This document shows positions 396-64,000 of a DNA stretch of 64,000 nucleotides, in pieces. Location: contig NC_071389.1 in NCBI RefSeq assembly GCF_022682495.2, positions 103,333,951 to 103,397,950 of the forward strand, given 5' to 3'. Positions within the stretch are counted from its first letter, which is position 1, and the number at the start of each line of letters is the position of its first letter. The notes beneath the pieces are model-generated. The model searched no databases and was not told the DNA's origin. It worked only from the letters and a program-made list of their open reading frames with translations. A program made the position numbers and the translations under genes. The stretch comes from Desmodus rotundus (Eukaryota > Chordata > Mammalia > Chiroptera > Phyllostomidae).

Positions 396-2411
396 GTTTT
401 TTGTTGTTGTGTTTGTTTTAATTGTATTTATTGGGGGGACATTGGTTAATAAGATTATATAGGTTTTAAGTGTGCATTTCTGTGATACTAGATCAGTATA
501 TTGCACTATGTGGTCACCACCTAAAGTCAAACCATCTTCTGTCACCATATATTAGGTCTCCCCTACAAAGCCCTTCGCTCTTGCAACCACCACATTGTCT
601 GGGTCCGTGAGTTTCAGTCTTATCTCCCACATATGAGTGAAATCACATGGTTCTTAGGTTTTTCTGACTGACTTATTTCACTTAGCATAATATTCTCGAG
701 GTCCATCCATGTTGTCACAAATGGCAGTATTTCATCTTTTCTTATGGCTGAGGAATATTCCATTGTGTATGTATATCACATCTTCTTTACCCAGTCCTCT
801 GTCAAAAGACACTTTGGTTGTCTTCATGTTTTGGCCACCATGAATAATCCTGCAGTGAGCATAGAGGTGCAAATATGTATTTTCGAGTTTTTTGAGTAGA
901 TACAGAGAAGAGGGATTTCTGGGTACTCTATTCTTAATTTTTTGAGGAACTAAGAGACGTCATCATAGTGGCTATACCAGTCTACATTCCCACCAGCAGT
1001 GAGTGAGGGTTCCCTTTTCCCTACAACCTCTCCAACTCTTGTTATCACTTATTGATAATAGGCATCCTAACAGGTGTGAGGTGATATGTTATGGTAGTTT
1101 TGATTAGCATCTCCCTAAGAGCGAGTGAGGTTGAATATTTTTTCATATATTTGTTTGCCATTTGTATGTCTTTTGGGGACAGGTGTCTGTCCAGGTCCAC
1201 TGCCCATATTTCAATTGAATTGTTTGTTTGTTTGGCATTAAGTTTTATGAGTTTTTCATATACTTTGGATATTAAACCTTTGTTGGTGGTGCTGTTTGCA
1301 ACTATCATCTCATTTGGTTGGTTGCCTTTTTGTTTGGTTGTCAGTTTCTTTTGCTGTGCAGAACCCTTTTATTATAATATAGTCCCACTCATTTATTTTT
1401 GCCTTTACTTAGCTTGCCTTAGGGGTCAAATTCATAAAGTGTTCTCCATGACCAAGGTTTGTAAGTTTAGTACCTATGTTTTCTTCTATGTAATTTATTG
1501 TTTCAGATTTTACATTGAAGCCTTTGATCCACTTTGAATTAATTTTTGTACATGGTGACAAACTAATATAGTTTTGTTCTTTTGCATGTGGCTTTCCAAT
1601 TTTCTCAGCACCATTTATTGAAGAGGCTTTCTTTTCTCTATTATATGTTTCTGGCTCCTTCATTGAAAATTATCTACCAATATACATGTTATTTTATATC
1701 TGGGTTCTCAGTTCTGTTCCATTGTTTGTGTGACTGTTTATTCTGTGCTGTTTTAACTATTGTCACTTTGTAGTATAATTTTAAGTAGTGTGCAGTACCT
1801 CCGGCCTCGTTCTTGTTTTATCAGAATTGCTTTGATTAAAGGTGGAGGCATAGGTAGATACACTTCGCTTCCTCGCACAACCAAAAGGAGGACAACAACC
1901 AATTTAAAAACAAAAAATAACCAGAACTGCCAGAAATTCAAACTGTGTATATCTGACAACCAAGGAGTTAAAGAAGAAACATTCATCTGAACTGGTAGGA
2001 GAGAGAGAGAGGGACAGCCAGGACAGAGTACAAGCAGCAAGATGGTGGCTGGCAGACTGGGTGTGCAAGGTAGCTGTGGTGGCTGGTAGACAGGGTGGTC
2101 CCACATTCATGTGCAGATAAACCAGGAGGAACAGCCGGGGAGTGAGACAGATCGTGCAACCTAGGTAACAGTGCAGACAAAAATAAACCCTCAGTACTTC
2201 TGGATGCAAAACCCTGTGCAAGTTGTGGCAATGGGAGAAATTGCCAGTGTCTTGAACTGGGGTGAGAACTGAAAAGGCAGCATTGTTCCCTCTCTGACCC
2301 CTCCCCTATAGTATTGCAAACAGTAAAGTGGGTTGCCCCACTCTGACAAATACCTAAGGCTTCGCCCTTTACAGAGTAACAGGTGCACCAAAACAAAGAC
2401 ATACGGCCCAA

Positions 2412-3207
2412 ATGAAAGAACAGATCAGAACTCTAGAAAAAGAACTAAGCCATCAGGAGATAGCCGACCCATCAGATAGAGAGTTCAAAACACTGGTCAT
2501 TAGGATGCTCACAGAAACGATTCATTAAAGATGCAAAATAAAGGAATTAGTGAAGGCTATACAAAGTGAAATAAAGAAAAATAGAGAGGGAACCAACAGT
2601 GAAGGGGAGGAAACGAACTCAAACCAATAATTTGGAACAGAAGGAGGAAATAAATATCCAACCAGAACTGAATGAAGAAACAAGAATTCAAAAAAATGAG
2701 GAGAGGCTTAGAAATCTTCAGGACAACATTAATTGTTCCAACATCCAAATCGTACAGATGCCAGAAGGAGAAGGGGAAGAGCAAGAAATTGAAAACTTCC
2801 CCAAACTGGCGAAGGAAATAGACATGCAAGTCCAGGAAGCTCAGAGAGTCCCGAAGAAGTTGAACCCAAGGAGGAACACACCAAGACGCATTATAATTAC
2901 ATTACTCAAGATTAAACAAAAGGAGAAAATCCTTAAAGAAACAATAGAAAAAGAGAGGGGTACCTACAATGGAGTTCCCATAAGACTATCAGCTGATTTC
3001 TCAAAAGAAACCTTACAGACAAGAAGGGGCTGGAAAGAATTATTCGAAGTCGTGAAAGGCAAGGACCTACATCCAAGATTACTCTATCCAGCAAAGCTAT
3101 CATTTAGAATGGAAGGGCAGATAAAGTGCTTCTCAGATAAGGTCAAGTTCAAGGAGTTCATCATCACCAAGCCATTATTATATGAAATGTTAAGGGGACT
3201 TATCTAA
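2412..3207 (+). pseudogene. L1 ORF1-like protein of copy A (disrupted)
   Basis: Translation resembles L1 ORF1p, the RNA-binding chaperone that coats L1 RNA. It has a charged coiled-coil-like stretch (EERLRNLQDN), an RRM-like region containing 'ENFPKLAKEID', then the C-terminal domain with IRLSADFSKETLQ and YPAKLSFRMEG motifs, ending LLYEMLRGLI-stop. The frame from ATG 2412 meets TAA near 2526 and is restored only from 2599, which gives a 202-residue open stretch. Residues around the RRM are shortened relative to the copy at 8864-9694 (no 'FEQIM' segment). Non-functional as it stands. Confidence 0.75.
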
Positions 3208-3349
3208 GAAGATGATCAAAACTATGAACAGTAAAATGACAACAAATTCACAGCTATCAACACCTGAACCTAAAAAAAACACAAACTAAGCAAACAACTA
3301 GAACAGGAACAGAATCATAGAAATGGAGATGACATGGAGGGTTATCAGT

Positions 3350-3377
3350 GGGGGAGGGGAGTGGGGATAATGGGGGG
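3350..3377 (+). other. G-rich tract in 3' UTR of copy A
   Basis: Four G-runs of four or more (G5, G4, G4, G6) with short loops lie in the 3' UTR of the ORF1-only element. This fits a G-quadruplex pattern. L1 3' UTRs are known to carry a conserved G-rich polypurine tract. The antisense copies show the complementary C-runs at about 8533-8563 and 11678-11704. Confidence 0.6.
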
Positions 3378-61880: not shown

Positions 61881-62564
61881 AAGCAGTAATTTCTGTATGA
61901 CTTTGGCTAGCATTTATGTCTGCAAGGAGTCCTGGAAAGCCAACATGTCTCGATTTGTTCACATGAGTAACAAATTCAGAGAGCTTGCAAGGTGACCTGT
62001 CTTCTTGTTTGTGTGAGATGGAGGGATTCCTAGGATGCTGGACTTACCTCCTAAAACCAGAATATTTGGGGCAAACCACATGAGTTACCTTGCTGGTGAG
62101 ATAGTGTAAAAACATTTTACTGCTCTTCTGCAGTCATAACTGAAACTCCAGCACCCAAAACATAGTTCAGTACTTTGGTTAATTCTGACCAGAGCAAACC
62201 ATGAAAGGCATGTCAATGCACCTTCCCACATTTGCAGGAAGAGTATGTCTTCTCCTATTTCCAAAGAACTGAGACAGAAGTACAGTGTTTTGATCCATGC
62301 CCATCCCAAATGACTGTGAAGTTCAGGCTGTGTGAGAACAGTATAAAAGGGAGCAAATGGGCAGTGTAGTCCAGGTTTACAGGAAGAATTATTTCATTTA
62401 CACTGAAGTTCAAAGTACAGCCTGTAGGAAGCTGATGGTAGAACTGTTCATGTGGACATTCACCTCAGCAAGTTAGTTATCGTGAGACTAGAGCTGAACA
62501 AACAAGAAAAAGATCCTTGCCAAATTGTGCCAAGTAGGGAAAAAAACGAGCAAATATTTAAAAG

Positions 62565-62596
<32 letters not shown>

Positions 62597-62618
62597 GCTT
62601 ATATACAGCTTTTCATAA
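61881..62618. other. Intron 10 sequence with (GA)n
   Basis: No gene or clear repeat apart from a (GA)n run at about 62565-62592 next to the 5' end of the following element. Confidence 0.55.
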
Positions 62619-64000
62619 TGGGACTTCCAGCCAGGATGGAGGCATAGGTTGCCCCTTGCACAACCAAAAAATAACCAGAACAGCTAGAAAATCAAACTGA
62701 GTGGAAGTCCAACAACCAAGGAGTTAAAGAAGAAATATATATCCAGACTGGTGGGGGCAGGTGGAGACAGGCAACTGGGGCAGAGAAGACTTAGACTTGC
62801 GGCATGGTGTCCGCTGGAAGACTACGTGGTCCTGCATTTGCGTGTAGATACACCAGGAGGACCAACTGGGGAGGAAGACAGACTGCACAACCTAGGGTTC
62901 CAGTGCATGGAAATAAAGCCTCAAAACCTGACTATAAAAACCCAAGGGAGCTGCGGTGGCAGGAGAAATTCCCAGCATAACAGGAGAGTTTATTGGAGAG
63001 ACCCAGAGGGTCCTAGAACATACACAAACCCACCCACCGGGGAATAAGCAACAGAAATGCCCAGTTTGCTTGTGGGTAGCAGGGGAAGTTAGTGGAAGCC
63101 TGCAGAGAGCTAGGCAAGTGGCATCGTTTCCTCTCAGACCCCTCCTCCACATACAGTGCCACAACACAGCTCTGGCTGGTTCCCAAGGTTCTGCCACTTA
63201 CTGTGTAACAGGCGGCAGAGACAAAAATAATATGGCCCGGATGAAAGAACAGATCAAAGCTCCAAAAACAAAATGAAGCGATGAAGAGACAACCTACCAG
63301 ATGCAGAGTTCGAAACACTGATAATCAAGATGCTCACAGAAATGGTTGAGTATGGTCGCAAAATAGAGGAAGAAGTGAAGGGTACGAAAAGTGAAATAAA
63401 GGAAAATGTACAGGGAACCAACAGTGACCGGAAAGAAACTGGGACTCAAGTCAACAATTTAGATCGTAAGGAAGAAAATAATTCATCCAGAGCAAAATGA
63501 AGAAACAAGAATTCAAAAAAAAAAAAAAAAATGAGGAGAGACTTAGCAACCTCGGGGACAACGTTAAACATTCCAACATCCAAATCATAGTAACTTGAAA
63601 AAATAATGGAGAACTTCCCGGGAGTCCCAGAAGATCGGACAGTCCCAAGGAAGCACACACCAAGGCACATCATAACTAAATTACCCAAAACTGAACATAA
63701 AGAGAGAATCTTAAAAGCAGCAAGAGAAAAGGAGAGCATTACCTACAAAGGAGTTCCCATAAGACTATCAGCTGATTTCTCAAGAGACCTTGCAGGCAAG
63801 GAGGAGCTGGAAAGTATATGAAGTCATGAAAGGCAAGAACCTACATCCAAGATTACTCTATCCAGCAAAGCTATTGTTTTGGAATGGAAGGGCATATAAA
63901 GTGCTTCCCAGATAAGGTCAAGTTAAAGGAGGAGGAAGTCATCCTCACCAAGGCTTTATGATATGAAATGTTAAGGGGACTTGACTTATCCAAGAAAAAT
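62619..64000 (+). mobile_element. ORF1-only L1 derivative (HAL1-like), copy F, cut by window end
   Basis: Sense copy. 5' end GGGACTTCCAGCCAGGATGG at about 62621, then a 5' UTR (62640-63240) closely like copy A, then ORF1 remnants from 63241. The + strand reaches the end of ORF1 at the window end, so the 3' UTR is not visible and the lack of ORF2 cannot be shown for this copy. Confidence 0.75.
63241..63982 (+). pseudogene. L1 ORF1-like remnant, copy F
   Basis: Start ATG 63241 (ATGAAAGAACAGATCAAAGC), with an early frameshift. Later parts (63606-63821) keep ENFPGVPED, HTPRHIITKLPK and YKGVPIRLSADFSRD-like text. An A-run at 63517-63530 and several shifts break it; part of the RRM is missing (deletion near 63600-63640). 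Non-functional. Confidence 0.7.

What the first reader, a model, noticed from the sequence alone, without database searches (positions are those of the whole stretch)
1841..64000. Multi-copy family of ORF1-only L1 elements (half-L1 type) in one gene
Six elements (1841-3603, 8462-10375, 11608-13465, 37014-39425, 48980-50937, 62619-64000) share a 5' UTR, an ORF1 and a 3' UTR. In the five that are complete, the ORF1 stop leads straight to a 3' UTR and poly(A), without endonuclease or RT sequence. Copies sit between target duplications (14 bp at copy E) and nest in younger repeats. They must have used ORF2 protein from an L1 in trans. HAL1 (half-L1) elements are known in mammals; I cannot tell whether this subfamily has been described. 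Copies B and C look alike over long stretches, so the family was active fairly recently.
Basis: partly seen in the sequence, partly recalled or inferred. Interest (0 to 1): 0.78.

Follow-up and report, generated by a model that had tools for sequence, protein, structure and literature searches.

The report
Bat family of ORF1-only L1 elements
This stretch of bat DNA holds seven copies of a jumping element that kept the first gene of a LINE-1 but lost the second, a "half-L1" of a known kind that must borrow another element's copying enzyme, with the mildly surprising twist that its remaining protein seems to have worn away the part that normally makes it assemble in threes.

Summary
Six copies (A-F) share a 5' UTR, ORF1 and, in the five that reach it, a 3' UTR, with no ORF2. 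I add a seventh, older copy G, split by copy D. After ORF1, copies A, E and G carry a relic of the ORF2 start (0 of 1000 random segments as good), then the L1 3' UTR; in B, C and D the relic is recognised only by likeness to the other copies. One founding loss of ORF2 fits better than scattered deletions. This is HAL1 ("half-L1") anatomy. Proteins with a similar N-terminus occur in two phyllostomid bats. Copying in trans by L1 is inferred. The coiled-coil heptads and RhxxhE trimer motif of the window's L1 are nearly kept in G and worn down in A-F; the motif is absent from 107 of 107 database proteins with this N-terminus. Between subfamilies the first 105 residues changed as fast as the UTRs, the RNA-binding part 2.5 times slower. 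HAL1 families are long described; HAL1 passages of 11 of 13 listed papers named no bat HAL1. Copy number, species and enclosing gene remain open.

The parts
1829..3603 (+). HAL1 copy A: 5' UTR, ORF1 (2412-3207, broken), ORF2-start relic from 3236, 3' UTR, short A tail
8462..10368 (-). HAL1 copy B, young subfamily; ORF1 8864-9694 (831 nt, one internal TGA); an ORF2-like piece of an older L1 lies just upstream
11608..13466 (-). HAL1 copy C, young subfamily; ORF1 12007-12696 with an in-frame 141-nt loss relative to B; lies in the tail of a VES-like SINE
37014..39432 (-). HAL1 copy D, older subfamily; holds two SINEs (about 38057-38244 and 38535-38728); lies inside copy G
48980..50940 (-). HAL1 copy E, older subfamily; clear target duplication of about 14-15 bp; holds one SINE (about 49211-49366)
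62620..64000 (+). HAL1 copy F, 5' UTR and ORF1, cut off by the window end; 33-bp tandem repeat of two copies at 63361-63427
36033..37006 (-). HAL1 copy G (oldest), 3' part: most of ORF1, ORF2-start relic (from about 36283), 3' UTR
39484..39598 (-). HAL1 copy G, start of ORF1, on the other side of inserted copy D
40372..41069 (-). HAL1 copy G, diverged 5' UTR
17180..20740 (-). L1 with ORF1 and part of ORF2 (breaks off before the 3' end), used as comparison for ORF1, the coil and the ORF2 start (19739); not part of the family
56600..57530 (+). 3' end of another L1 (ORF2 end, stop, 3' UTR), used as comparison for the junction; not part of the family

Best explanation
The copies belong to one HAL1-type lineage of non-autonomous L1 derivatives in a bat. 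Shown from the sequence: the copies share a 5' UTR, an ORF1, a short stretch that in A, E and G is recognisable as the start of ORF2, an L1-type 3' UTR and a short A tail; the oldest copy, G, runs through the same passage from ORF1 to 3' UTR as the younger ones. Inferred: a founder L1 lost ORF2, from about codon 10-15 to the stop, in one event. It was then copied as a unit by target-primed reverse transcription, using endonuclease and reverse transcriptase from full-length L1s in trans, while making its own ORF1 protein. Shown: the copies fall into groups of different age (G; then A, D, E, F; then B and C). Between B,C and D,E the RNA-binding C-terminal part of ORF1 changed least, while the N-terminal part changed at the rate of the UTRs, and heptad occupancy of the coil falls from G to B and C. 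Inferred: the young HAL1 ORF1 proteins may no longer form the canonical L1 trimer rod, and may act as altered RNA binders or lean on L1's own ORF1 protein as well.
For: Shared anatomy of six copies and of G. PF02994 and PF17490 in A, B and C. No ORF2 match inside any copy apart from SINE-derived hits. Junction scan: best breakpoints keep 27-45 nt of ORF2 and resume between 12 nt before and 5 nt after the AG|AATC next to the stop, 6 copies scanned. Segments before the join match the L1 ORF2 start better than all 1000 random segments in A, E and G, 3 of 6 tested; segments after the join match the L1 3' end with 0, 14, 2, 1, 9 and 0 of 1000 as good in A, B, C, D, E and G. The relic 38-mers agree with each other at 21-36 of 38 positions in 15 pairs. 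ORF1 is less diverged than the 5' UTR in 15 of 15 pairs and than the 3' UTR in 10 of 10. A majority reading of ORF1 has 0 stops in 276 codons. Target duplication at E. B and C flanks align no better than chance (scores 12 and 16; null median 12, 95% point 17). A similar N-terminus in 439 of 477 candidates under the cut, five named proteins from two phyllostomid bats among the 120 listed. Heptad occupancy: L1 0.70 and 0.75, G 0.70, D 0.56, Artibeus P0086 0.44, C 0.33.
Against: B, C and D do not show the ORF2-start relic better than chance (159, 120 and 284 of 1000). The gain of the best hybrid over one without any ORF2 start is small in B (24 against 22), C (31 against 28) and D (35 against 31), and the scan maximises over many breakpoints. 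In the first hybrid alignment the left part of C and both parts of B fell in wrong places. Pairwise dN/dS is 0.65-1.22 and changes that separate B,C from D,E show no third-position excess (15, 12, 15), so protein-level purifying selection is not shown by codon positions. One inferred codon change between these groups involves a stop. Four of five testable target duplications are weak. The tree does not prove that G and A-F form one clade apart from the L1s: the {L1a, L1b} split has 56% support. D's heptads are still above most shuffles (44 of 2000 as good), so the coil loss is graded. No genome-wide count was possible, and the database proteins say nothing on whether an ORF2 follows them.
Confidence: 0.82

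Rival explanations
1. Recurrent splicing: full-length L1 RNAs of successive ages were spliced from a donor in the ORF2 start (AAAT|GTAAAT) to an acceptor at its end (ATATATAG|AATC), and the spliced RNAs were copied again and again, as with human SpIREs. The copies would then not be a self-propagating lineage.
For: A join at exactly these sites (39 nt kept, resume at AG|AATC) scores 208 summed over 6 copies, close to the best 213 and above the direct-join model (30 nt kept, 203); it beats the direct join in B, C, D and E and ties in A. SpIREs are an established process (PMC5860796, abstract and passages seen). The database proteins with this N-terminus could come from full-length L1s; I cannot tell.
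Against: The oldest copy G prefers the direct join (53 against 45). The one window L1 whose ORF1 N-terminus I read (17180-20740) has a different, heptad-rich one, so no parent L1 with the HAL1-type N-terminus is seen here. A single splicing event could still have made the founder.
Confidence: 0.12
2. Ordinary full-length L1 copies that each lost ORF2 by separate deletions after insertion.
For: Old L1s do accumulate deletions; A, C and E carry private losses in ORF1.
Against: Copies of very different age align without a break from ORF1 into the same 3' UTR with similar relics; a terminal motif is shared by five ORF2-less copies and found nowhere else in the window.
Confidence: 0.03
3. Local segmental duplication multiplied one element in this region.
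For: Seven copies in 64 kb; B and C lie 1.2 kb apart in the same orientation.
Against: BLAST matches between B and C stop at the element ends; their 300-bp flanks align at scores 12 and 16, within the chance range (median 12, 95% point 17 in 300 draws). C lies in a SINE tail, D in G, E between its own target duplication. Pairs other than B-C are 11.8-36.2% diverged, by region.
Confidence: 0.02

Closest known systems
HAL1 (half-L1) families of mammals, e.g. human HAL1, HAL1B, HAL1M8 (names in PMC5753468); HAL1-1C_Cja of marmoset and HAL1-1H, -3D, -1G, -1E_Cpo of guinea pig (PMC3183009, Table 2); HAL1_Ssc of pig (PMC6501411)
   Same: L1-derived, ORF1 only, A tail and target duplications, thought to use L1 endonuclease and reverse transcriptase; independent origins several times in mammals (PMC5753468 and PMC5322556, passages). 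In guinea pig, ORF1 coding capacity is said to have been kept for about 29-44 Myr, taken to mean that a cis-encoded ORF1p is needed (PMC3627910, passage).
   Different: This is a bat lineage with its own ORF1 N-terminus. Whether it equals a family already in Repbase or Dfam could not be checked: no repeat library was at hand and Bao and Jurka 2010 (PMC2923044) is not held.
Human SpIREs (spliced integrated retrotransposed elements; PMC5860796)
   Same: Internally deleted L1s with a recurrent join; the HAL1 join lies next to plausible splice signals.
   Different: The abstract describes splicing within the 5' UTR or from 5' UTR to ORF1, not loss of ORF2; a 2026 paper calls SpIREs typically dead on arrival (PMC13174262, passage). 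Here ORF2 is lost and the family spread.
L1 of the same window (17180-20740, minus strand; ORF1 and part of ORF2)
   Same: Homologous ORF1 C-terminal part; its ORF2 start matches the relic in A, E and G.
   Different: Has ORF2; its ORF1 coil is about 24 residues longer by a rough count (85 against 60-61 in the five database proteins where both anchors were found), heptad-rich, and holds an RhxxhE motif, RLDEAE.

Membership tests
HAL1 (half-L1) | Encodes an L1 ORF1 protein with RRM-like and C-terminal domains | tested here: met
   PF02994 and PF17490 in A, B and C (the E fragment given had none); a database relative matches ORF1p structures. All window copies are broken; unbroken 275-276-residue readings exist among database relatives and the majority reading has no stop.
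HAL1 (half-L1) | No ORF2 | tested here: met
   No ORF2 match in A, B, C or F; those in D, E and beside G are SINEs.
HAL1 (half-L1) | Loss of ORF2 shared by the family, not private to copies | tested here: met
   A-E and G align through from ORF1 to the 3' UTR. The ORF2-start relic is significant against the L1 in A, E and G, not in B, C and D, which resemble A and E there (24-32 of 38). F is cut off before it.
HAL1 (half-L1) | Retroposed copies: A tail and target duplications | tested here: inconclusive
   Short A tails in A-E; only E has a clear target duplication.
HAL1 (half-L1) | Many copies in the genome | tested here: inconclusive
   Seven in the window. 439 protein clusters with a similar N-terminus, 115 of the 120 listed from unnamed ENA contigs. 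Own genome not searchable.
HAL1 (half-L1) | Mobilised in trans by L1 ORF2 protein | not testable with these tools
   Needs cells; inferred from anatomy.
L1 ORF1 protein of canonical trimeric type | Continuous heptads and RhxxhE trimerization motif before the RRM (PMC5940361, passages) | tested here: not met
   0 of 107 database N-termini have RhxxhE in the stretch searched. Heptad occupancy of a 40-position linker is 0.18-0.45 in A-F; of a 31-residue one 0.33 in C, 0.56 in D and 0.44 in P0086, against 0.70-0.75 in the window L1 and 0.70 in G. The structure prediction was too poor to add anything.
SpIRE | Join at splice donor and acceptor | tested here: inconclusive
   Splice join 208, direct join 203, best 213, summed over six copies.

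The most novel reading that the evidence does not exclude
After losing ORF2, this lineage kept amplifying while its ORF1 protein gave up the coiled-coil trimer that L1 needs, so that the young HAL1 protein works in another oligomeric state or only as an add-on to L1's own ORF1 protein; HAL1s would then be a natural experiment on which part of ORF1p an element must encode for itself.
Probability: 0.18. Interest if true: 0.6.

Novelty: new member of a known kind. Interest (0 to 1): 0.35.

Why it matters
HAL1s are unusual among non-autonomous elements in carrying one whole protein gene of their helper while borrowing the other. One published view is that they need their own ORF1p in cis (PMC3627910, passage). 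A lineage with an old copy that keeps most of the coil and young copies that lost it lets one ask which part of ORF1p that is. For annotation, such elements may explain ORF1-bearing predictions in bat genomes, including two Artibeus gene models whose whole sequence is an ORF1 of this type.

Tried and rejected
Separate post-insertion deletions and segmental duplication were considered and rejected. Codon-position and dN/dS tests for purifying selection on ORF1 were run and did not give the expected third-position signal; this counts against the simple picture of a conserved protein. Searches for related loci in viral contigs (5 pattern stretches, 0 relatives; 0 matches) and in prokaryote genome contigs (28 pattern stretches, 0 relatives) gave nothing, as expected for bat DNA. 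Structure prediction of a database relative with 41 alignment rows gave mean pLDDT 40.8 and was not used. No L1 with the HAL1 3' terminus was found in the window, so the helper is unknown. tRNA and Rfam (gathering threshold) scans were empty. The null printed for the B/C flanks was spoiled by overlapping draws and was redone.

Literature: searches list 13 distinct papers with HAL1; searches list none. HAL1 passages were read in 11 of the 13; PMC3575242 and PMC7586669 were not opened. None of those passages names a bat HAL1. This does not cover Repbase, Dfam or subscription journals. I have an uncertain memory that Repbase holds Myotis HAL1 entries; no call confirms it.
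Full report
What is there. A and F lie on the plus strand, B to E on the minus strand. A profile of the six finds the same elements again plus a seventh, older one, G, in three pieces: 41069-40372 (5' UTR), 39598-39484 (start of ORF1) and 37006-36033 (rest of ORF1 and 3' UTR), with copy D lying between the last two (raw sequence). The same profile picks up the ORF1 of two L1s, at 20706-19775 and 7179-6680; ORF2-like sequence follows both.

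No ORF2. I translated ORF2 pieces of three L1s of the window and searched all of it. No hit falls in A, B, C or F. Hits in D, E and beside G coincide with short repeats found elsewhere in the window too, which I recognise from memory as bat VES SINEs; one query piece contained such a SINE. ORF1 carries both L1 ORF1 domains in A, B and C.

The join. I compared the region after ORF1 with two window L1s: one that shows the inter-ORF spacer and ORF2 start and one that shows the ORF2 end, its stop and 3' UTR. A hybrid of the two scores above either alone in 6 of 6 copies, but the parts fall in sensible places only in A, D, E and G; in C the left part and in B both parts land elsewhere. Scanning all breakpoints, the best fits keep 38 nt (A), 44 (B), 33-45 (C), 38 (D), 37-38 (E) and 27-30 (G) of ORF2 and resume close to the stop; against a hybrid without any ORF2 start the gain is 17 in A, 17 in E and 14 in G, but 4, 3 and 2 in D, C and B. 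Against 1000 random segments of the window, the part before the join beats all in A, E and G, but not in B (159 as good), C (120) and D (284). The part after the join has 0, 14, 2, 1, 9 and 0 of 1000 as good in A, B, C, D, E and G. The ungapped 38-nt relic agrees with the L1 ORF2 start at 25 positions in G (1 of 63962 window 38-mers as good), 22 in E (7), 20 in A (26), 19 in C (74), 18 in B (153) and 18 in D (349). Among themselves the relics agree at 21-36 of 38. So the ORF2 start is recognisable in A, E and G, and B, C and D carry the same stretch in decayed form. I read this as one founding loss of nearly all of ORF2, inherited by copies of different age. Whether it arose by splicing (a GT lies at +40 and an AG just before AATCTAA) or by a direct deletion cannot be decided: summed scores are 208 and 203, best 213, and the oldest copy prefers the direct join.

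Retroposition. Copy E has a clear target duplication (AAACAAAATGTGGG; 1 of 2000 random 40-mers as good). C scores 17, D 56, B 81 and A 109 of 2000, so only E, and perhaps C inside a SINE tail, stand on their own. Copies A-E end in short A runs. The 300-bp flanks of B and C align at scores 12 and 16, within chance (median 12, 95% point 17). That L1 provides the machinery for SINEs and likely for HAL1s is stated in PMC4161310 (passage seen); here it is inference.

Age and subfamilies. B and C differ by 5.2% in ORF1, 8.6% in the 3' UTR and 12.8% in the 5' UTR; the other pairs by 11.8-18.6% in ORF1, 20.2-25.4% in the 3' UTR and 23.9-36.2% in the 5' UTR. A tree of the ORF1 C-terminal part groups B with C (100), D with E (87), and sets G and the two L1s apart from A-F (98); it does not resolve G from the L1s (56). 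With a bat neutral rate of 2-3 per billion years, which I recall and did not check, B and C would be of the order of 15-25 million years old: not recent in an absolute sense.

Selection. ORF1 is less diverged than the 5' UTR in 15 of 15 pairs and than the 3' UTR in 10 of 10. A majority reading has 0 stops in 276 codons. Yet dN/dS between copies is 0.65-1.22, and sites that separate B,C from D,E show no third-position excess (15, 12, 15). Split by domain, those sites are 29 of 307 in residues 1-105 and 13 of 319 in the C-terminal part, against 101 of 976 outside ORF1, a count that includes a few flanking columns. The C-terminal part is slower than the N-terminal part (Fisher p 0.0099) and than the UTRs (p 0.0004), while the N-terminal part equals the UTRs (p 0.74). 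In the N-terminal part 31 changed codons are nonsynonymous and 3 synonymous; in the C-terminal part 11 and 4, one of the 11 involving a stop. These are few sites from decayed copies, and the low rate at all three codon positions of the C-terminal part is unexplained.

The coil. [quoted passage not shown] all vertebrate ORF1ps are said to contain a coil (PMC9410894, abstract). The window L1 reads ...IRLDEAEDQISELEDKVEKHSQ, with RhxxhE (RLDEAE) and 0.70-0.75 of best-phase a/d positions filled by L, I, V, M or F (shuffles as good: 1 and 7 of 2000). G reads ...NSRLDEAKNQISDLEYK, 0.70 (7 of 2000), one residue from the motif. D is at 0.56 (44 of 2000), C at 0.33 (222), an Artibeus relative at 0.44 (194). 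Over a slightly longer stretch A-F lie at 0.18, 0.36, 0.27, 0.45, 0.36 and 0.36. The fall is thus graded. Of 236 database proteins held, 107 have the N-terminal motif used to define the group, and 0 of 107 hold RhxxhE in the stretch searched; whether an ORF2 follows those proteins is unknown. A structure prediction was too poor to use (mean pLDDT 40.8). This is a sequence argument only; an upstream stretch rich in hydrophobics (around residues 24-50) remains and could still oligomerise.

Relatives. Searching the B ORF1 gave 7998 candidates scored, a cap, all under the cut, of which 120 were listed, 117 of them from unnamed ENA contigs. A search with residues 1-105 of an Artibeus relative gave 439 of 477 candidates under the cut, 120 listed, 115 of them unnamed; the five named ones are from Artibeus jamaicensis and Phyllostomus discolor. 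No statement on species or copy number can rest on the unnamed ones. In the PDB, six distinct ORF1-type sequences match, from residue 88 or later.

Known or new. HAL1 families are well established in mammals, with several origins (PMC5753468, PMC5322556, PMC3183009, PMC6501411, passages seen), and in guinea pig one is reported to have kept ORF1 for about 29-44 Myr (PMC3627910, passage seen). The key paper, Bao and Jurka 2010, is not held. In the HAL1 passages of 11 of 13 listed papers no bat HAL1 is named, but repeat libraries could not be consulted. I file this as a new member of a known kind; it may prove to be an already named family. What lifts it slightly above routine is the apparent graded loss of the ORF1 coil within one HAL1 lineage.

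Noticed in passing
window 54651-55025 (-): ORF with a CCHC zinc knuckle, retrovirus gag-like, in a GC-rich stretch (54-56 kb); described only.
   Followed up: no
window 9702-9726: Copy B has a run of at least 25 A (on its own strand) just before the ORF1 start; C has a shorter one in the same place.
   Followed up: no
window 63361-63427: 33-bp unit present twice in tandem within copy F, in the ORF1 N-terminal part.
   Followed up: no
protein hits P0086 and P0095: Two predicted Artibeus jamaicensis gene products, named as citramalyl-CoA lyase isoform X5 and LIM and senescent cell antigen-like-containing domain protein 2 isoform X1, consist of an ORF1 of this type: mispredicted or exonised repeats.
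   Followed up: partly
protein hit P0058: A record named Colwellia sp. RSH04 holds an ORF1 close to the Artibeus ones, most likely bat DNA contamination.
   Followed up: no
protein hit P0121: An unnamed protein with two ORF1 N-termini of this type head to tail, of two subfamilies.
   Followed up: no
   Followed up: no
window 10379-10450 (-): ORF2-like sequence directly upstream of copy B: B probably inserted in an older L1.
   Followed up: partly
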